Below are positions 3,101 to 63,379 of a stretch of DNA of 64,000 nucleotides, one piece after another. Position numbers and translations under genes: made by a program. Position 1 is the first letter of the stretch; each line of letters opens with the position of its first letter. The DNA comes from Costus lasius (Eukaryota; Streptophyta; Magnoliopsida; Zingiberales; Costaceae): contig CM050449.1 in NCBI GenBank assembly GCA_027563935.2, forward strand, positions 13,530,501 through 13,594,500. Direction: 5' to 3'. The notes beneath the pieces were generated by a model. That model did not search any database. It was not told where the DNA came from and was given only the letters and a program-made list of their open reading frames with translations.

Positions 3101-6100
3101 AGATGAAAAGAACTTTGGTGAAGACATGATAGTTTATCTTATTGAAGTAGATTGAGAAAGAGGAACATGGTATTTGATCCATGGAATTGCAAATTTTTGA
3201 TTATTAACAATGATAGTATAGAAAATATTCATAAATGGAAAAGCATTGTTGAAAGTTAACACAAGACATTCCAAAAATTTTGAAATCATGACTAGCCCGT
3301 GTATTTCAGAATGCACCGTAAAGGGGTTTCAACCTCAAAACACCTCATGGGAAAAGGACTAATGTGGTCTTGTAAATTAATTATGTTCTGGGGTGGCTTT
3401 GTGGTAGTTAACTTAGTAGGCAAGTAGTTTGGTAGTGGGTGGTTAAATTAGTGTTAGTAGCAAGGTTTAAATCAGTTCAGGCCTAGACGTATTGATCCAT
3501 TACCGGATCGGTAAGTATTGATCCATTGTCGGACCGGTACATATTGGCCCATTGTCGGACCGGTACATACTGATGATCCATTGTCAGATAAGCATATAAG
3601 CATATGGCACCAATGGTACTAGTTAGTTTTAATTATAACATATTTATATTATATACATATATAATCATTACCGACCATGGTTGGTGTTAGTATTTATGCC
3701 CTAGGACCTCAAGATGGTCCATTGGGATGTGTATCACATCTAGTTGATAGATGAGTTATCCTGGCATTGTCGTTGTTAGAGGTGGTCATGGGCCGGGCCC
3801 TGGCCCGCCTCGGCCCTACTCCTGGCGGGCCGTGCCTGGCACAGCCCAATTGTAACCGTGCCGTACCCGGCACGGCACGACAGAAAAATACTTGGGTCCG
3901 GCACGGCCCGCGGCACGTTTAGGCGTGCCGGCCCAGGCACGGTTCAACTTCTGGCCGGGCCCGGATCCAGCACACGGGCCAGAATCGGCACGCAGGCTGA
4001 AACTGGCCGGCAGGCTATGGTCGGCCCAGCGGGCCGTGTGCGGCCCGAATGTGGCCCACATGCCGAATTTGACCCATGGGCCGACTTTGGCCCGCTTCAT
4101 TAAAATAAATTTTAAAAATAAATAAAATATTAATAAAATAAGAAATTGAGAATTATGTATTTTGCATAATTTTTTTAAAAAAATATTTAATTATTATTTT
4201 ATTAATTATTTTATTTTAAAAATATATAATTTTAATTTTAATATATTTTATTAAATTAATATTTATTTATTTATTAACAATACTAACAACATATGACTAA
4301 AGTTAAAACCAACTCGATTAAATTTCATATTAATAAATTATACATTTAAGCTTAAATCAATTGCCGACATAATGGGCATACACAATTGACCCATAGCCAA
4401 CTACACAAGCAGCTACTATGGAAGATATGCGAGCATTGTGTTAAGCATACTTGCGCTCCGTGCTCCATCTTCTCTATGCATATTGCACACTTCATGTTTT
4501 CAGCTCTACCTCCTTCTTCAATAATAAAAAACTCAAGTGACTCTTGTGCTTGGTTTGTTTCGATATATTGCTCCGGCTCATCGTTGATATTATCACTATC
4601 CTCCTCACTATCACTTATTTCAAAGTCCTCAACCTCTATCTCAATCTCAACCCCAGAAGGGGAAGGAGAAGCCAAAAATTCTTGTCTTGCATGATCAGAT
4701 AAGTGGATAAAGTGTTCTTCAAACCTGAATACATCAATTCGTATAATTTGACTAACACGTTCGATAATACTTAAAATAGTGATTCTCCATTGATCAGCAT
4801 TGAAGAAATTTAAGGTAGATGTAAGGAAGATTGAACGTTGAGAATTTGGCATAATGATAATTATCTTCACTCTTCTATTATATGTCATTTTTCTCTATGT
4901 CTTGTGCTCGTGCTCACCACGTGATAATTATATTATAAAAGTAAATTAATTTAATACTTACTTGATCTTCTCCACGTCTAGTCACGTGGTGAGCACGAGG
5001 CATAGAGAAAAATGACTAGTCTAGACCGAGAGAGCATTGAATTCTTGATGGCTAGAAAGAAGCTTAAGTTTGAGTTCAATTAAGAAACTAATTGTAACTC
5101 AAGACTTAGAAAAGAGATTAAGAGAGTATTAAGAGAGAATGAGAAATTATTCCAAAGCTAGTTGGAAACTTGTGTGAAGAAATGAGAGCGTTGGGGGGTC
5201 AATTTATAGTGATGAATTGGGTGTATAATTACATATTTATACCCTATTTTTAATTATTAAAATGGGCTAAAATGGTAATTTTATACCATAAAGACAATTA
5301 TATCCCTAACTTTTAAAATTTTTATAACTGTTATGAGGGCATTTAGGTAAAAATGAACGTTCATTCACGTGTCGTGCCGTGCCTGGCCCGGCCCCGCGTC
5401 CGTGCTGTGCCTGGCTCGGCCCGCGTGTCGTGCCGTGCCTGGCCCGGCACGCCTGCGGGCCATGCCCGGCCCGGCCCACGGGCCACGAACCCTCAGCCCA
5501 GCCTGACCCGAGCTGGGCCACGGGCCGCCCGCGGCCCGTTGACCAAGTCAACGGGTAGTGCTGTGCCCGGCACGGCACGTTGGCCACCTCTAGCCGTTGT
5601 TATGCAAGTTTGTACATCTGCACGTATGTACATTTGCATATATAATGTCCCTAAGAGATAGATTTTATCTAGTCTTTGTGTTTATCCTGGTCGAGAATCA
5701 TAGTGGATATGGGATAGCTATGATTCACTTGAGACTGACATATGCGCTGGTTGAGCACGGGTTGCTAACGCAGACATATGGGTATATCAAGGGAGATATA
5801 CTGGATCGACCCGCCGTGAGGATTCATCTCGGTGTCACGAGATGAATATCACAGTGACAGAGTTGCGCTTGTCCTAAACTTGAGGGCATTGGTATCTCTA
5901 TATAGTGATTGATGTACTTTGATGCAACCTAACGCTTCGTCGTAAAAGGAGAGTCATAACGGTTGTCCTTGGGTATGTCGCAAGCCGTATGAGGGATTCA
6001 ATGTGCCAATAGCGGCTTTGCCCCTTCCTTGCAGGGAAGCTTGATTGCCCATGACGCCCCTATATAGATGACTGAAAGTGTATGGCCATACCCAGGTGAG

Positions 6101-33831: not shown

Positions 33832-36060
33832 CTAAAGCTCAGCATTCACATCATCAAAAAGATAAGCATAAAACTTCTTCATATCAGCTTCAGTCTCCCA
33901 TGTCGCCTCCTCAACCGACTGATTTCCCCAAATAACCTTTACCAAAGGTATAGTCTTGTTCCTCAGAACTTTATCCTTTCTATCTACAATCCGGAGAGGT
34001 CTTTCCTCAAAGGTCAAATCACTCTGAATCTGAAGAGGTTCCAACTCCAATACATGAGATGGATCAGGATGATATTTCCTCAAAACAGAAACATGGAACA
34101 CATTATGCACATGATCCATAGCAGGAGGTAAAGCTAACCGGTAAGCCACTGGACCAATTCTCTCAATAATGTCAAAAGGGCCTACAAACCTAGGGCTCAA
34201 CTTGCCCTTTTTGCCAAACCTCATAACACCCTTAGTAGGTGACACTTTTAAGAAAGCATGATCCCCTACCGTAAACTCCAGGGAACGACGACGGTCATCA
34301 GCATAACTCTTCTGTCTGTCCCGAGCAATCTTCAATTTATCCTGAATCTCTCTGACCTTATCAGTAGTCTCCTGAACTGCATCAGATCTCAAAATCATTC
34401 TGTCACCAGTTTCCTCCCAACACAAGGGAGTCCTACACCTTCTTCCATACAAAGCCTCATAAGGAGCCATCTGAATACTGGAGTGGAAGCTATTATTATA
34501 AGTGAACTCTATCAAAGATAGATCCCGGTTCCACTCAGAACTCCAATCAACTACATAAGCTCTCAACAGGTCTTCTAGAGTCTGTATAGTACGCTCCGTC
34601 TGGCCATCAGACTGAGGATGGTATGCTGTACTAAAACTCAACTTAGTACCCAAACCCTCCTGTAAGCTCTTCCAAAATCTGGACAAAAATCGAGAGTCCC
34701 TATCAGACACAATATCAACAGGCACTCCATGCAGTCTGACTATCTCATCAATATACAATCTAGCCAGTCTCTCTAAAGGATAAGTCATCTTAATCGGAAG
34801 AAAATGGGCTGATTTAGTGAGTCTATCCACAATCACCCAAATAGCATCATGACCCAATCTGGTTCTGGGCAAACCACACACAAAATCCATACTGATGCAT
34901 TCCCACTTCCACTCAGGAATAGGAAGAGGCTGCAACAAACCACCAGGTTTCTGATGTTCAGCCTTTACAGTTTGACAGGTTAAACACCTAGAGACAAAAT
35001 CAAACACTTCTTTCTTCATACCCGGCCACCAAAAGCTCTTCTTGAGATCCTGATACATCTTAGTCACGCCAGGATGTAGAGAATATTTGGAGTTATGGCT
35101 GTCCTCCAATATTTCTTTCCTCAAGCTCGGTTCCTTAGGGACACACACCCTTCCACGAAACCGAAGAATACCATCATCAGACAAGCTAAAATCCTGAACT
35201 GTACCCGCAACCAAACTATCCCTGATCTGAACTAATCTCGGATCCACAGACTGCTGATCTCTGATCTTCTGCAACAAAGCAGACTGTACTCTGAGGAAAG
35301 CCACATATCCAGACTGAACTCTAGGAGTAACACTGATCCTGAGATCTCTGAACTCCTGCAGTAACTGCCACTCACTGACCCGTAAAGCAGCTACTGAAGT
35401 AACTGGATGTCTGCTCAGTGCATCCGCCACTACATTGGCCTTTCCAGCCTGATACTGAATAGAGAAGTCATAATCTTTGATCAACTCCATCCATCTTCTC
35501 TGTCTCATGTTCAACTCCTTCTGAGTGAAGATGTACTTGAGACTCTGGTGGTCAGTGAACAGATCAAACTCTTGACCCAACAAATAGTGACGCCATATCT
35601 TCAGAGCAAAGACTACGGCCGCCAACTCTAAGTCATGAGTAGGGTAGTTCAACTCATACTCCTTCAGTTGTCTCGAAGCATAGGCTACCACAGAACCCTT
35701 CTGCATCAAGACACAACCCAACCCTTTGCCTGAAGCATCCGTATAAACAGTAAACCTTTCCCCATCACTAGGAATAATGAGGATCGGTGTACTAGTCAAC
35801 CTTCTCTTCAGCTCTTGAAAGCTTTCTTCACACTTGTCATCCCAAATAAATTTGGCCTCCTTTCTGGTCAATTTAGTTAAAGGACCCGCCAGCTTGGAGA
35901 ATCCCTCAACAAATCTCCGGTAGTAACCTGCTAATCCCAGGAAACTCCTGATCTCAGTAGCACTAGTCGGTCTTCCCCAATTGAGGATGGCTTGCACTTT
36001 AACCGGATCCACAGACACCCGCTGACCAGAAATCACGTGTCCAAGGAAACTGATCTTTTC
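33832..36060 (-). CDS. Chromovirus pol: RT end, RNase H, integrase, chromodomain (5'-truncated)
   Basis: Open for about 742 codons, 734 from the first Met at 36036. In order from that Met: RT connection ([20 protein letters not shown], about 31-50), RNase H (YTDAS with D100, E137, D162, ADALSR with D205), integrase zinc finger (H314, H321, C351, C354), integrase core with D384 (SMDF), D445 (VSDRDSRF) and E481 (GQTER), then [16 protein letters not shown] and a C-terminal chromodomain (about 675-725, [16 protein letters not shown]). The chromodomain and sequence style place it in the Tekay/Del chromoviruses, which target heterochromatin. Coding is uninterrupted, which suggests a young copy, but the RT catalytic core is cut off at 36060 next to unrelated sequence. 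Confidence 0.93.
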
Positions 36061-57100: not shown

Positions 57101-58677
57101 GTTTTAGTTTTTTTTGTACCACTTGCCTGTAAAATTCGTCATCCAGCTGTTCGTCAGATTGGCTTGTCACTGCATAGTGCAAACCCATCTCGTGAGTCTA
57201 TTCTCAGCAGGAATTACTGTATGAATTCTTCGTCTTCCTAGTAATTGGTCAAACAAGTTGGCGATTATTTTGTAATCTTTATTTGTTTTGTTATCTCTTT
57301 TCTTTTTTTTTCTCTTTTGATGGATTCATCATCACTTTATTCTAACTTATTATGGTGGGGAATTCGTTCTTTTATATGGAGTTTTGACATCTGAAACCAC
57401 TTGTTCCGCAATCCTCAAGCATATGAAGTACGATATTTTCTTTCTTGGTCGTATCTCTTGTTGTCGTTTATCCAACTCATTTCATGCTCCAGTTGCTTCC
57501 CATTTATTTGGAGAAAGATCATATGAAGTATGAACATTTATATAAGGTTCTTTCCCCTACATTTGACCTCTAAATGTCTTGGTTAGACTTGTATATGGAG
57601 CAGCAACCCTGTGATATCGTTTTGAGTATCACCAAGACCCTGTCTGCCAACACTGGTTAAACCAGCTTGTCTTGGATATAATTTTTAAATGTTCGTAACC
57701 CTGCATATGGATCTCTTACAAGGTTGAGGACTACAGTGAAAGAAAAGAGATTTTTCGTTTTTCTAATATTTTCTTCCAGAATGTCTTGATTGCTCGCATG
57801 ATCATTATATCACTAGATTTATGGATAATATCACTTTATGTTGGTGTTTTACAATATCAATATAATAGCTTGCAAATATAAATTTTAATGTGGATCAAAT
57901 TTGGTTGTTCATGTCACTAGTACTCAGCGCTGAGTTAGTTCTTTGATCAGGATATATTCTAGGCATGGATTGATGGAATGTTTGGGAGCTTATGATGCCC
58001 TAGTGTTATCTTTTGATGCCTAAGTTTGCATGACAGATCATCAGACAAGTACAACGAAAGTTGTCGTGAAGAAGACTATAGCACTATGTATCATGTCAGC
58101 GTTAATGACATTCAGAGAAATTATCTACCCTTTGAAGAAGGGGTTATTTAAAATGTCTTTTAGTAAGGTCATGTCCACATGTGCCGAGGAGTTTATGGCT
58201 GTATTCAATGGTGTAGTGTAGCAGTAGCTCCTTGTAGCCGACCTTCAATGAGCAATGAATTCTATCTTTGACTTAGCTAAAGCAACTTGTGGATTTATTA
58301 TAATTTTTAGTTGTGTCCTTCCATTTGACCCATGAGGAAGAGGTGTGAGGTATCAGAGCCATGCGTGTTTGATCACTTGGTAACTCGTGAATAATTCAAG
58401 TGTGGGGAGTTGGTAGGTGTCACATCCTAATTAGAAAATGAGTGATGGCATGAAAATACTCTCTCTATTATCCGAAAAAATGGCATATCCTGGGTACCCA
58501 GGTGAGAATTTTTCATCCGGGTGCCTTAATCTGCCGCCCATGAATCTCTAAAGATAGCTGGCTAGTGTGCATATCTCGAGGCCCGTCTGCCGTTTTGGCA
58601 TTGTACACAAAGCTGTTACTGTCGCTATCCACCTCCTGTTATCCCTCTCCGCTTAACCTTGGTTAACCCGTTAGGGT

Positions 58678-59080
58678 TTTACCACTACATTCGAAGCTGT
58701 GAAGAAAACAAAAAAGCTCCCGTGCCCTTTCGCTGTCCAAAACATCCCAAGCTCGCGGAACACGCACCTTTTGTCTTCGTGCCCTAGCTCTGACGATTCT
58801 TTGTCTATGTACAGCCAAATCTCCCCCGATCGTGCCCCATTCTCTTCAGCGAGCCCTCCTAGAACCTCCCAACTCTTGTCCGACCTGCAAGGCTTTCGAC
58901 TTCTGATTGTAAGGTAAAATTTATTCATTATTTCTTTTTCTCTCCTGATTCTAAGTACCATCGTGTATAGCTCAGTCGTGTATCCGAAGCTCGCCTCGTT
59001 TTGTCCTCGTCTCCTACCTCCGGCGATTCTTTGTTCTGATTATTTCTATAGCATAAGGTATTAAGGTATACTTTATTCAT
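58678..59080 (+). other. Probable non-coding leader of the plant-mobile-domain/Ulp1 element, partly duplicated
   Basis: A more GC-rich stretch after an AT-rich region, ending near a possible donor (TTGTAAG/GTAAAATT, 58917). The second half repeats its features: CGATTCTTTGT, CTGATTATT and TTTATTCAT(C/T)(G/A)TTTCTTTTTCTCT occur in both 58780-58945 and 59025-59095. I infer a 5' leader exon and a diverged tandem copy. Confidence 0.35.
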
Positions 59081-59106
59081 CGTTTCTTTTTCTCTGACAG
59101 TTTATA

Positions 59107-60250
59107 TGTTGATATCAACATAATATGGTTGATATCAACTGTAAAAAACCCTATATCGACTGTGAAAGGTCCCCGGGTAACTATAATATGTTTTATGATT
59201 GTTTGTTGATATCAACATAATACGGTTGATATCAACTGTAAAAACCTTATATCGACTGTCAGAGGTCGTCGGGTAATTATGATATGGCCGATATCAACCA
59301 TAATATGGTTGATATCAACTGGAAAAAAAAAAATCCTATATCGACTGTGAAAGGTCGCCGGGTAACTATGATATGCTTTTTTATTGTTTGTTGATATCAA
59401 CATAATATGGTTGATATCAACCTTAAAAAGACTAAGGTCGTCGGGTAACTTTGATAGGGTTGATATCAACCATATTATGTTGATATCAACTGTACAAAGC
59501 CTATGTCGACTGACAGAGGTCATCGGGTAACTATGATATGGTTGATATCAACCTGCTATCAACTGCAAAAACCTTATATCGACTGTAAAAGGTCGTCGGT
59601 ATACTATGATATGATTGATATCAACTGAAAAAAAACCCTATATCGACTGTGAAAGGTCGCCGGGTAACTATGATATGCTTTATTAATGTTTGTTGATATC
59701 AATATAATATGGTTGATATCAACTGTAAAAAGTTTAAGATCGCCGGGTAACTTTGATATGGTTGATATCAACTATAAAAAGATTAAAATCGCCGGGTAAC
59801 TTTGATATTATGTTGATATCAACTATAAAAAGCCTATGTCGACTGACAGAAGCCATCAGGTAACTATGATATGGCTGATATCAACATAATATCAACCTGT
59901 TATCAACTGCAAAAACCCTATATCGAATGTAAAAGGTCGTCGGTATACTATGATATGGTTGATATCAACATAATATAGTTGATATCAATTAGAAAAAACC
60001 CTATATCAACTGTGAAAGGTCGCTGGGTAACTATGATATGCTTTATTAATGTTTGTTGATATCAACTGTAAAAAGGCCAAGGTCGCTGGGTAACTATTAT
60101 GTTGATATCAACTGTAAAGAGCCTATGTCGACTGATAGAGGTTGTCGGGTAACTATGATATGGTTGATATCAATCATATTTCAACCATAATATGGTTGAT
60201 ATCAATTATAAAAACCCTATAGTATGGTTGATATCAACCATAATATGGTT
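59107..60250. repeat. Palindrome array: TTGATATCAA alternating with a TCGCCGGGTAACT box
   Basis: About 22 exact TTGATATCAA palindromes occur in 1.15 kb, usually extended to GTTGATATCAAC, often in pairs about 21 bp apart joined by CATAATATGG. Between them lie about 14 copies of (G/A)TCG(C/T)CGGGTAACT(A/T)TGATATG, spaced 50-96 bp, and several copies of CCTATATCGACTGTGAAAGG. The array ends about 70 bases before the first Met of the Ulp1 element gene. Two further palindromes lie beyond that gene at 63291 and 63370. Confidence 0.92.
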
Positions 60251-60319
60251 CACTTCTTACCGTATCATAGTTTGTTGTTATATTCTCCTATGTTTTGACA
60301 GACCTGTCATCATTAAAGG

Positions 60320-63126
60320 ATGCAAAAAATGAGGTACTCTATTTCAGCCTCTTGTTCAGACTCTAGTCCAGTCAATAATGATAAATTTATGTTGGTACCG
60401 CACATCCCGAGAAAAGGGAAGAAGAAGGCAAAGGAAAGCAAGCGACCAAACTTTAATATGTGCTCCATGTTAAGACTCCAAAAATATATGAAAGAAATAT
60501 CAGAGGGCAATAATTTGATTGAGATGTTGGCCCGGACCCCCTTTGGTCTTTTCTTCCAAGGCCGAGCATAGTTCTGGATATGTTAGGCATCGAGTATTTT
60601 AGAAATAATTGGGATAAGCAAAGAAAAAGATTCCTCATTAATGGAATATTTCTAGAATTCTCCGTTAAGAATGTGGCAGTCATCCTAGGACTATCCAATT
60701 CTGGAGAGCTTGTTAAATTTGATGCTGATATGCCCGGTACAACATTCTACAACGAGGAATTCAAGGGCTTATTAATAACAATGAAAGCACTTGAATTGAA
60801 GCTCAAAGGCTTGAGAGGGGAGAACGGTGAAATTTTGGATGAAGAAAAGATGCTGAAACATAGTATTTTATATATATTTTGCACATTCTTATTTTGTGGT
60901 GTTACGTACACTCTGAATTCTTTATTTGTTAATTATGTGGAAGACTTGACAAAGCTCCACACATACAACTAGGCTGAGGCTGTACATAGATATCTTATAG
61001 AAGATTTGTCAAGAAGCCTGAAGAAGAAAAATTTTGTGTAATTTTCAGGTTGTGGCATCCTGCTTAATGTAAGTATCTCTTTGATCCTACTATGTGTAAT
61101 GAATGTCATAATATCTGTCTAGCTGATAACTTATTTTTTTATAGGCGTGGTTATATGAGCATTGCCAATTATTTACCAATATAAAGGTTGAAGGTGCTCA
61201 TCCTCACCTATTTTGGTGGGCCAATGTGAAGTTTAGAAGAAGAAACACATTTTTTAATTTATTGAAAGATGTGAATAAGCAAATGGTATGCAATCTAGCT
61301 TGTGTCCTTCTCACTAAGATCCTTATTGAGAAGTCTAATTAAGGTTCAATATCATGTGTGCAGATTATTTTTGTGCAAAAGCTGATGTGTAAGAATCATC
61401 AGACAAGTTGTTGTTATACTGTGAAGAAGATATACCAAATGTTGATAAACTCTCAGTTGGACTAATTGTAGCTACACAGCTAATTGAAGCAAATGTAGAT
61501 ACATAGCTAGTTGAACGAAATGTAGATACACCACCTGTAGATAGTCTGGATACTTAGTACATGTATAAAAAATGATAGGCTGAAACATGATTTAGCCATG
61601 GTTATTGCAGAGAGAGATGAGGTTCTCCGCAGATGCTTTAATTTTGATTTGTCTTAGGAGATAGAGCAGCTTTAAACTGCTCTGAATGATTCCGTTAGCA
61701 AAATAAATAGGTTTGTTGAAGAGAACAAGGATGTGCAACTAGCCTTCGAAGCTGCATCTTCTGAATTTGAGTCTACAATAAAGGGCCTGAATGATGAGAA
61801 GCAAGAGCTCCTTCTAGCCACAAAAGCCCAATGTGAAGAGTATGAAAACAAAATTAAGGGACTAAGGGATGAATATGAAAAAAAGTTGCAGAATCTTACA
61901 GCTTTATATGATAGGCTGAAAAAAGAACACGAGAAAGCTTCAGCCGATAATCCAGAAGAAGGAGAAGATGATACTAATGATGATGCTGCTGCCGAAGGAG
62001 CAGAACCCCAAAAGTTGAGTCCAAGGGGAAAGGAAAGAGGCGACGATTCAAGTCAAAGGCACTGGCCTCACCTTATTCCCAAGTCCCGAAAAGGTAGAAG
62101 CTTGTATAGCCCACAGAGACAATTGTAATTGATGAAAAAACCTCGGAAATATCATATGTAGATAAGGTATTACTCGATAAGCTTAACTATTATTCTTAGT
62201 ATGCCATTTATTTTATTAACAATGATTTATTTTTTTTGTAGTTTATTGGTAGAATTGATTATTGTGGATATGATAAAATAAGTGATGACAAATGCAACCA
62301 AATAAAGAGCTATATGGAGATCCCGTTAGCAGAATTCCATAAGGGCGAGCCCTGTAGAATATTGAAATCACAGATATATCAAGTATTGTTTAGGGAACGA
62401 CTAGGAGAGATGTAAGTTTTATCCAGGTATAAATTCTTAATACTTTATACACTATAGTATACTCATTAATGTATTTTTGTCTTTTGTATGCAGGCTATTG
62501 ATTCTTATGTCGTCCTTCTCGCAGATAGAAGTAAAAATAACCAAAGGAAAGAAAAGTATGTAGATGTTATTTACATTTTCTCCTTGTTTTTTTCTATGTA
62601 TGAACGCGAGGCATTTGGAGCCGCCTATACGTTTGTGGAACATGTAACTAAGGATGCTCTAAAGCAAATGTACATAATTATGATCCCAGTGTACAACAAC
62701 GACCATTGGTGGCTCATGTATATACAAAGGGATAAGAAAACAATAACTCTTTATAATTCTTTACTGACTCTAAGGAGAATAGACAAATCTGCCCATAAGC
62801 ATGTGGTAAGTTGTTTCATGGTATGAGTGTATTCCGTTAGACCTTTATTTCTTATTGCCTAATTATTTGTTGATGCAAGTTGATTTATTGAATTCACATA
62901 TACTATTCCAGACTAGAGGTATTCCTACATTATCTCGAGCATGGGATTTATCAAAATACGAAACAACATGGGCTCCAGACTGTCATGCACAATATTCTGG
63001 TGTTGATTGTGGCGTTTTGTAATTAAATGTATGGATTGTCTAATTTGTAACAAACTAATGGATTTTAGTCAAGATGATATGCCATATTTTCAGGCTATCA
63101 TTAGTCTTACCTTGTTTAGTGGGTAG
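60320..63126 (+). pseudogene. Transposon gene: plant-mobile-domain-like region, coiled coil, Ulp1-type cysteine protease; decayed
   Basis: Likely exons: 60320-61068, 61145-61285, from 61364, a coiled-coil exon to about 62165, 62242-62411, 62494-62805, 62912-63126. The N-terminal part (LARTPFGLFFQG, YFRNNWDKQRKRFLINGIFL, VAVILGLSNSGELVKF) resembles proteins found in plant Ulp1-carrying transposons. A Lys/Glu coiled coil (61733-61960) and an acidic stretch follow. The C-terminus is a C48 (Ulp1) fold: VYNNDHWWLMYI (catalytic His), LYNSL where Asp is usual, and CHAQYSGVDCG (Gln and catalytic Cys). Lesions: one missing base near 60560, TAG at 60970-60972, TAA at 61039-61041, two stops near 61655-61680, and one missing T at 63015-63018 right after the Cys; adding a T restores FVIKCMDCLICN. 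Confidence 0.75.
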
Positions 63127-63290
63127 ATAGGCAACGATTGATTTTATACGTTCAATATCATACGTTCAATATCGTGTATTCATTAATGTATTTATTTCTG
63201 TAATGTTACTCACGTGGTATCTGTAGTTAACAGACGAGATCTTAGTGCATTCACATTTGTATGCTTGTATGTAATTTTTTTATTTTATAG

Positions 63291-63379
63291 TTGATATCAA
63301 CTATAACATACCAGAGTTTGATTTGTCTATCTAGTCTCGGACCTTCACCAGAGTGTAGGGTGCGAATAGTTGATATCAA
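63291..63379. repeat. Two outlying TTGATATCAA palindromes
   Basis: Exact copies at 63291-63300 and 63370-63379, each within AGTTGATATCAAC. They repeat the motif of the main array on the other side of the Ulp1 gene, suggesting that both belong to one element. Confidence 0.8.

What the first reader, a model, noticed from the sequence alone, without database searches (positions are those of the whole stretch)
59107..63379. Palindrome array of TTGATATCAA flanking a plant-mobile-domain/Ulp1 transposon gene
About 22 exact copies of a 10-bp perfect palindrome and about 14 copies of a separate TCG(C/T)CGGGTAACT box are packed in 1.15 kb that ends about 70 bases before the gene. Two more palindromes sit just beyond its 3' end. 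The two-box alternation with variable 50-96 bp spacing is unlike a simple satellite. It looks like an array of protein-binding sites, as in subterminal transposase-binding repeats. I infer that the array is a cis part of this element family, perhaps read by a dimeric DNA-binding protein.
Basis: partly seen in the sequence, partly recalled or inferred. Interest (0 to 1): 0.78.

Follow-up and report, generated by a model that had tools for sequence, protein, structure and literature searches.

The report
Transposon carrying phased palindrome binding-site arrays
The palindrome array belongs to a large plant jumping gene that keeps dozens of copies of one short symmetric DNA word, tending to be spaced by whole turns of the double helix, most likely as landing sites for a protein of its own that counters silencing by the plant.

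Summary
The array is real: 22 exact TTGATATCAA in 1.13 kb, plus two 3' of the gene (0.22 expected per window). It belongs to a 15.7-kb Mutator-like transposon, window 58474 to window-equivalent 74215, with 729-bp inverted repeats (89% identical), a near-perfect 10-bp target duplication and a MULE transposase facing a decayed DUF1985–coiled-coil–Ulp1 gene. It holds 50 palindromes, none inside these two genes. In 30 gene copies, flanks hold 392 sites (90 kb), bodies 1 (78 kb). The extended site is a 20-bp dyad; neighbour spacings favour multiples of about 10.3 bp. One sister element lacks the palindrome but has another motif at 21/42 bp beside a diverged Ulp1 gene. Best reading: target sites of an element-encoded anti-silencing protein working like Arabidopsis VANC/KIU, specificity lying outside the Ulp1 half, since 14 copies have a diverged Ulp1 half and 12 of them keep the motif. 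Binding and demethylation are inferred. It is not a VANDAL: TIRs are long, and relatives' transposase is FAR1-type. New variant of a known kind. The second box is patchy (15 of 30 copies). Sixteen of 20 listed palindrome clusters remain unassigned.

The parts
58464..58473 (.). left copy of target-site duplication TCTATTATCC (right copy TCTATTACCC, outside the window)
   Evidence: 9 of 10 bases match at the ends set by the TIR alignment
58474..59200 (+). left terminal inverted repeat (729-bp alignment, 89% identical to window-equivalent 74215-73487 in L005/L006); its inner end holds the first palindromes
   Evidence: matches at other genomic places, several in opposed pairs
59109..60237 (.). 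left array: 22 exact TTGATATCAA (extended consensus over copies TATRGTTGATATCAACYATA)
59170..60154 (+). second box TCGYCGGGTAACT, 14 sites with up to 3 mismatches, part of the repeat unit of the left array; its core recurs in 15 of 30 gene loci
60322..63123 (+). decayed DUF1985 - coiled coil - Ulp1 gene, several exons (set by eye), frameshifts and stops
60523..60969 (+). DUF1985 region (PF09331, E 0.006 here; 8e-7 to 9e-5 in 4 of 5 other copies tested; all below the curated cut-off)
61434..61531 (+). 27-bp tandem repeat, 3.6 copies, between the DUF1985 and coiled-coil parts
61676..62125 (+). coiled-coil-like region (weak matches to assorted families, several of them coiled-coil)
62470..62823 (+). 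Ulp1 protease domain (PF02902, E 3.7e-8, above cut-off; also in 3 of 3 other copies tested)
63291..63379 (.). two palindromes 3' of the gene; the series continues outside the window (11 more to window-equivalent 68064, then 15 in a right-hand array to 73580)

Best explanation
The palindromes are target sites, placed in the non-coding parts of a TIR-type Mutator-like transposon, for the DUF1985-Ulp1 protein that the same element family encodes. The protein, probably as a dimer through its coiled coil, binds the 20-bp dyad; many sites set at whole helical turns let many molecules sit on one face of the DNA between each terminal repeat and the gene it faces and in the central spacer. There it removes or keeps off host silencing marks, as VANC proteins do at VANDAL transposons, so that transposase and reader can be made. 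Shown here: anatomy, near-absence from gene bodies, helical bias of spacings, link to the family at the tested loci, another motif in one sister element.
For: Element with TIRs, TSD and MULE transposase. 50 sites in this element, at both ends and in the centre, none inside the two recognised genes; 392 in 90 kb of flanks against 1 in 78.2 kb of bodies in 30 gene loci, a few of which overlap. Adjacent spacings peak at 20-21, 42, 62-63, 72, 82-84, 93-94 and 102 bp: mean cosine 0.546 at 10.3 bp (n=349), 0 of 2000 jitters reach it (maximum 0.128); with look-alike spacers merged still 0.298 at 10.2 bp (n=122, jitter maximum 0.279). 396 pairs at 20-21 bp in the genome, reversed control 0, chance 0.08. 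Sister element L046: 0 palindromes, 66 same-strand GTATAACA, 45 of 62 neighbour spacings 21 bp and 13 of 62 42 bp, with its own Ulp1 gene. Fourteen 'type B' copies are as close to ours as type A over the DUF1985 half and intron 1 (0.88-0.95 per 60 bp) but drop at about 61260 (0.62-0.90, 27 of 31 bins under 0.85) in the coiled-coil and Ulp1 half; 14 of 14 type A and 12 of 14 type B carry the palindrome, so the Ulp1 half does not set the motif. [quoted passage not shown] VANC6 has another motif (PMC5735166, parts 1-3 of 6 read); VANCs with Ulp1 (KIU) act likewise according to a review (PMC13317346, passages).
Against: No binding, expression or methylation data. DUF1985 matches stay below the curated cut-off, and 1 of 5 other copies gave none. 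No DUF287 was found. Off-phase spacings such as 77, 79 and 89 bp also recur 6-7 times each, and the mean cosine falls to 0.443 at 10.5 bp. The gene in the window is broken. A structure prediction of the DUF1985 part failed (mean pLDDT 34.5).
Confidence: 0.66

Rival explanations
1. The palindromes are binding sites of the transposase itself (subterminal repeats as for TNPA of En/Spm, recalled), needed for pairing of the ends and cutting.
For: Both terminal arrays touch the TIRs; a 1.1-kb deletion derivative (L042) keeps TIRs and 2 sites; of the transposases listed, those of 77-81% identity have no 20-21-bp palindrome pair within 25 kb (17 of 17 on C1, 8 of 8 on C2 below 44.07 Mb), so the motif also tracks the transposase clade.
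Against: 13 of 50 sites lie in the central spacer, 4.8-7.4 kb from the nearer end; the sister's second array lies between transposase and Ulp1 gene.
Confidence: 0.18
2. The sites are promoter or enhancer elements bound by a host transcription factor that the element exploits.
For: Arrays lie between each terminal repeat and the gene that it faces; that the repeats are promoters is inferred.
Against: Central sites; another motif stands in a sister element of the same host, which is odd for a fixed host factor.
Confidence: 0.1
3. A self-expanding minisatellite with no function; the palindrome is simply what happened to amplify.
For: The left array is made of related 49-96-bp units with a 302-bp higher order.
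Against: Helical bias that survives merging of similar spacers, though weakened; core 92-100% against 83-91% outside in the alignable parts of five copies (two further alignments held no palindrome, and one of the five only two); 1 site in 78 kb of gene bodies.
Confidence: 0.06

Closest known systems
VANC anti-silencing system of Arabidopsis VANDAL transposons (VANC21/YAGTATTAY, VANC6/AGTTGTCC)
   Same: DUF1985-like protein gene in the same element as a transposase; short motif at high density in non-coding DNA; spread by tandem repeats; different motif in a related family; short repeats within the gene
   Different: Here long TIRs (729 bp) where VANDAL TIRs are degenerate (PMC10398659, passage); relatives' transposase has a FAR1 DNA-binding domain; the motif is a 20-bp dyad; Ulp1 found and no DUF287
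KIU (Kaonashi) genes: Ulp1-carrying VANC genes of Arabidopsis KI-MULEs
   Same: Ulp1 domain, DUF1985-like part, gene opposite in direction to the transposase; the review PMC13317346 (passages) says KIU elements recognise motifs in their own kind
   Different: KI-MULEs are non-TIR MULEs (PMC2528002, passage)
Ulp1-carrying TIR-MULEs and Jittery-like MULEs of grapevine and melon
   Same: Same element type: TIRs, ULP gene downstream of transposase, either orientation (PMC2528002, passages)
   Different: No motif arrays or anti-silencing are mentioned in the passages read
TNPA-binding subterminal repeats of En/Spm (recalled)
   Same: Many short sites near element ends
   Different: There, as recalled, limited to the ends; here also central, and with helical bias

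Membership tests
Mutator-like element (MULE) | MULE transposase domain | tested here: met
   PF10551, E 6.1e-23 at L005:7713-8162 minus strand
Mutator-like element (MULE) | terminal inverted repeats and 9-11-bp target duplication | tested here: met
   729-bp TIR alignment, 89%; TCTATTATCC/TCTATTACCC
VANDAL | degenerate or absent TIRs | tested here: not met
   VANDAL feature from PMC10398659 passage
VANDAL | MuDR-type transposase (recalled for VANA) | tested here: not met
   FAR1 DNA-binding domain + MULE + SWIM in family member L045 and sister L046; in the window's own element only the MULE domain was hit in the three pieces scanned
VANC/KIU-type anti-silencing system | DUF1985 in the second gene | tested here: inconclusive
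   E 0.006 here, 8e-7 to 9e-5 in 4 of 5 other copies; curated cut-off 35.1 bits not reached
VANC/KIU-type anti-silencing system | Ulp1 domain (KIU only) | tested here: met
   PF02902, 33.9 bits against cut-off 20.7; 3 of 3 other copies tested
VANC/KIU-type anti-silencing system | DUF287 (VANC) | tested here: not met
   no hit in the Pfam scans of gene pieces
VANC/KIU-type anti-silencing system | short motif dense in non-coding DNA of the own family only | tested here: inconclusive
   dense in flanks and nearly absent from bodies: met; own family only: 4 of 20 listed clusters assigned, 16 not tested
VANC/KIU-type anti-silencing system | motif differs between related families | tested here: met
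   one sister element, L046
VANC/KIU-type anti-silencing system | protein binds the motif and causes hypomethylation | not testable with these tools
   needs experiment

The most novel reading that the evidence does not exclude
A VANC-like, self-targeted anti-silencing module (DUF1985 reader plus helically phased motif arrays) works in long-TIR MULEs with a FAR1-type transposase, outside the VANDAL lineage and without TIR degeneration. It is modular: the DUF1985 half and its motif stay together while the Ulp1 half is exchanged near an intron, and sister elements in one genome hold separate motif codes (a 20-bp dyad for one, a 21-bp-phased asymmetric word for another).
Probability: 0.5. Interest if true: 0.72.

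Novelty: new variant of a known kind. Interest (0 to 1): 0.55.

Why it matters
[quoted passage not shown] Here 729-bp TIRs and dense motif arrays sit in one element, so the two can be studied apart. The divergent Ulp1 halves behind one kind of DUF1985 half point to the part of the protein that may read DNA, and two motif codes in one host give a ready specificity test and possible tools for aimed demethylation.

Tried and rejected
Plant-mobile-domain label: PMD is only a weaker second hit. Independent satellite: not supported by the tested loci, but 16 of 20 listed clusters were not looked at. Second box as private to this copy: I held this, which counted one strand only; one search shows its core in 15 of 30 gene loci, so I withdraw it and call the box patchy. 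CpG retention in the array (0.99 against 0.49 in the gene) as a fossil of low methylation: dropped, since 1-kb bins across the window range from 0.16 to 1.52. Protein database search: 7995 candidates scored, none at E<=0.001. Structure prediction: useless model, no fold search made. My note called L046 decisive; one search showed that it is not. L029 and L033 lack palindromes: in both, homology to the element stops at the gene piece, and the L029 upstream flank reads as a Copia integrase by eye, so I take them as detached pieces. A paper search for the motif word listed 20 of 41 papers, none on this subject by title. Sasaki et al. 2022, EMBO J (PMC9016345) is not held; that it reports motif density and helical periodicity is recalled, not read. 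In one search the upstream and downstream counts of 13 minus-strand loci were swapped; one search corrects this. One search had a strand error and is replaced.
Full report
Observation. The window holds 24 exact TTGATATCAA, 22 in 59109-60237 and two at 63291 and 63370, against 0.22 expected. The second box is looser than stated: 5 exact copies, 14 with up to 3 mismatches in the array. Palindrome gaps run from 20 to 146 bp; 6 of 21 are exactly 20.

What it sits in. With the next 20 kb fetched, window 58474-59200 aligns inverted to window-equivalent 74215-73487: 729 bp, 89.3%. The ten bases outside are TCTATTATCC and TCTATTACCC, nine alike. The unit is therefore a 15.7-kb TIR-type Mutator-like element. 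Its transposase (PF10551, E 6.1e-23) is on the minus strand near the right end and faces the gene of the finding. Family member L045 and sister L046 show FAR1 DNA-binding, MULE and SWIM domains; that this is the Jittery-like type is recalled. The gene of the finding is broken by frameshifts and stops and has a DUF1985 part (E 0.006; 8e-7 to 9e-5 in 4 of 5 other copies tested, always below the curated cut-off), a coiled-coil-like part and a Ulp1 domain (E 3.7e-8). From the sequence alone I infer that the left array may lie in an intron of the 5' leader (a GTAAGG in the TIR, an acceptor-like CAG at about 60300); this is not tested.

Where the palindromes are. The element has 50: 22 left, 2 just 3' of the gene, 11 in the middle spacer, 15 right. 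A DNA search with the gene gave 46 matches, 30 of them as loci including this one (40 of 286 candidates scored). Their 1.5-kb flanks hold 252 sites upstream and 140 downstream, in 45 kb each; their bodies, introns included, hold 1 in 78.2 kb. 28 of 30 have at least one. The two without, L029 and L033, show no homology to this element outside the gene piece. A few of these loci overlap (L010/L011, L031/L032), and all copies descend from one family, so the counts are not independent. Genome density is 5.7 per Mb (7347 sites), flank density about 760 times higher.

The site. Flanks of 472 exact sites (35 stretches, some overlapping) give TATRGTTGATATCAACYATA, a 20-bp dyad; 284 further 10-mers differ by one base. 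In alignable parts of the upstream array, the core is 92-100% identical and the rest 83-91% in 5 of 7 copies compared; the other two alignments held no palindrome, and in one of the five only 20 core bases were compared.

Second box. Its core GGGTAACT is in 15 of 30 gene loci, with 4 or more copies in 6 (L007, L008, L009, L010, L014, L035), most in the window's own copy (10); L005, the middle and most of the right side of this element, has none and L006 one. It is a patchy companion of the palindrome, not a constant partner. Whether it does anything is open.

Helical phasing. From 446 distinct genomic sites, 349 neighbour spacings of 10-130 bp peak at 20-21 (94 pairs), 42, 62-63 (47 pairs), 72, 82-84, 93-94 and 102. 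Mean cosine is 0.546 at 10.3 bp and 0.443 at 10.5; 2000 jittered sets reach at most 0.128. As arrays copy themselves, I merged pairs of equal spacing with look-alike spacers: 0.450 (n=223), 0.356 (n=175), 0.298 (n=122, jitter maximum 0.279), none of 2000 jitters reaching the observed value in any of these. The effect is much weaker when strictly merged; off-phase spacings such as 77, 79 and 89 bp occur 6-7 times each; and the jitter scan used a slightly narrower period range than the search for the best period. In the whole genome 396 pairs lie at 20-21 bp, the reversed control 0, chance 0.08.

Independent clusters. Two clusters picked from the pair listing for their many pairs were fetched; both are members of the family (L044 with pieces of the Ulp1-carrying gene, L045 with transposase and TIR). 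Rows come in contig order, so I take the listing as complete for C1 and for C2 up to 44.07 Mb; there it holds 20 clusters. By comparing with it, 4 of 20 have a known family match; the other 16 are unassigned, because only 40 candidates were scored per DNA search and later searches did not complete.

Two kinds of Ulp1 half. Against the window's gene, 14 copies of type A fall off evenly (0.80-0.94 per 60 bp). Fourteen of type B stay at 0.86-0.95 through the DUF1985 half including intron 1 and drop at about 61260 to 0.62-0.90, 27 of 31 bins under 0.85, in the coiled-coil and Ulp1 half. One copy, L023, was left out of both groups. Against L018, 13 type B copies give 0.93-0.96 and 0.86-0.94 for the two halves, and the 9 of 14 type A copies that I compared give 0.86-0.93 and 0.77-0.80. 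As intron 1 is conserved too (mean 0.91), recombination explains this better than selection on coding sequence alone. 14 of 14 type A and 12 of 14 type B copies have the palindrome. So the Ulp1 half does not set the motif; the DUF1985 half or another conserved part may.

A sister element. L046, chosen for its long transposase frame, is 83% identical in the MULE domain and 62-64% over the compared transposase. It has no TTGATATCAA but 66 GTATAACA on one strand (2 on the other), spaced 21 bp in 45 and 42 bp in 13 of 62 neighbour gaps of up to 130 bp, mainly in two blocks, one of them between transposase and a convergent Ulp1 gene of about 30% identity. Among the 150 scored transposases (of 1221 candidates), 17 of 17 on C1 with 77-81% identity have no 20-21-bp palindrome pair within 25 kb, nor have 8 of 8 on C2 below 44.07 Mb with 78-81%, while the one of 88% there has. 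This shows that motifs change between sister families; since transposase and Ulp1 protein both differ, it does not by itself say which one reads the motif.

Mechanism. [quoted passage not shown] related VANCs have other motifs, and their variable regions often hold tandem peptide motifs (PMC5735166, parts 1-3 of 6 and passages). The gene here has a 27-bp repeat of 3.6 units between its DUF1985 and coiled-coil parts. VANC genes with Ulp1 (KIU) act on KIU elements, according to a review (PMC13317346, passages). I therefore hold that the palindromes are sites for the DUF1985-Ulp1 protein and serve anti-silencing; the dyad and the coiled coil suggest a dimer. Binding and demethylation are not shown.

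Known or new. Ulp1 genes in TIR-MULEs and Jittery-like MULEs are known from grapevine and melon (PMC2528002, passages). VANDALs have degenerate TIRs, and the authors leave the link to VANC open (PMC10398659, outline, Introduction and passages). The combination of long TIRs, FAR1-type transposase in relatives, dyad motif and helical phasing was not met in what I read; searches made. The key paper, Sasaki et al. 2022, was not held and may cover part of it. As a VANDAL feature fails, I do not file it as a VANDAL; I say that it works like the VANC/KIU system.

Noticed in passing
L046:511-1354 and 4602-5463: A second, asymmetric motif (ACATGGTATAACA) repeated mostly at 21 or 42 bp on one strand in a sister element; its genome-wide spread could not be searched.
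   Followed up: partly
C2:90212699-90219554 (L010, L011), C4:102225180-102230789 (L031, L032), C2:142885769-142893517: Gene copies in convergent pairs a few kb apart, as if some elements had replaced the transposase by a second inverted copy of the DUF1985-Ulp1 end; the first pair is bounded by opposed TIR matches.
   Followed up: no
L029:1-1520: Copia integrase-like sequence (read by eye) runs directly into the start of the DUF1985 gene copy, near the gene's first ATG.
   Followed up: no
L042 (C5:121607400-121609000): A 1.1-kb deletion derivative with both TIRs and two palindromes.
   Followed up: partly
window 33832-36036: A 734-aa reverse-transcriptase/integrase frame that looks like a Gypsy retrotransposon by eye, minus strand.
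   Followed up: no
C7:65227151-65287191: Opposed TIR matches about 60 kb apart around gene copy L023, perhaps an element swollen by nested insertions.
   Followed up: no
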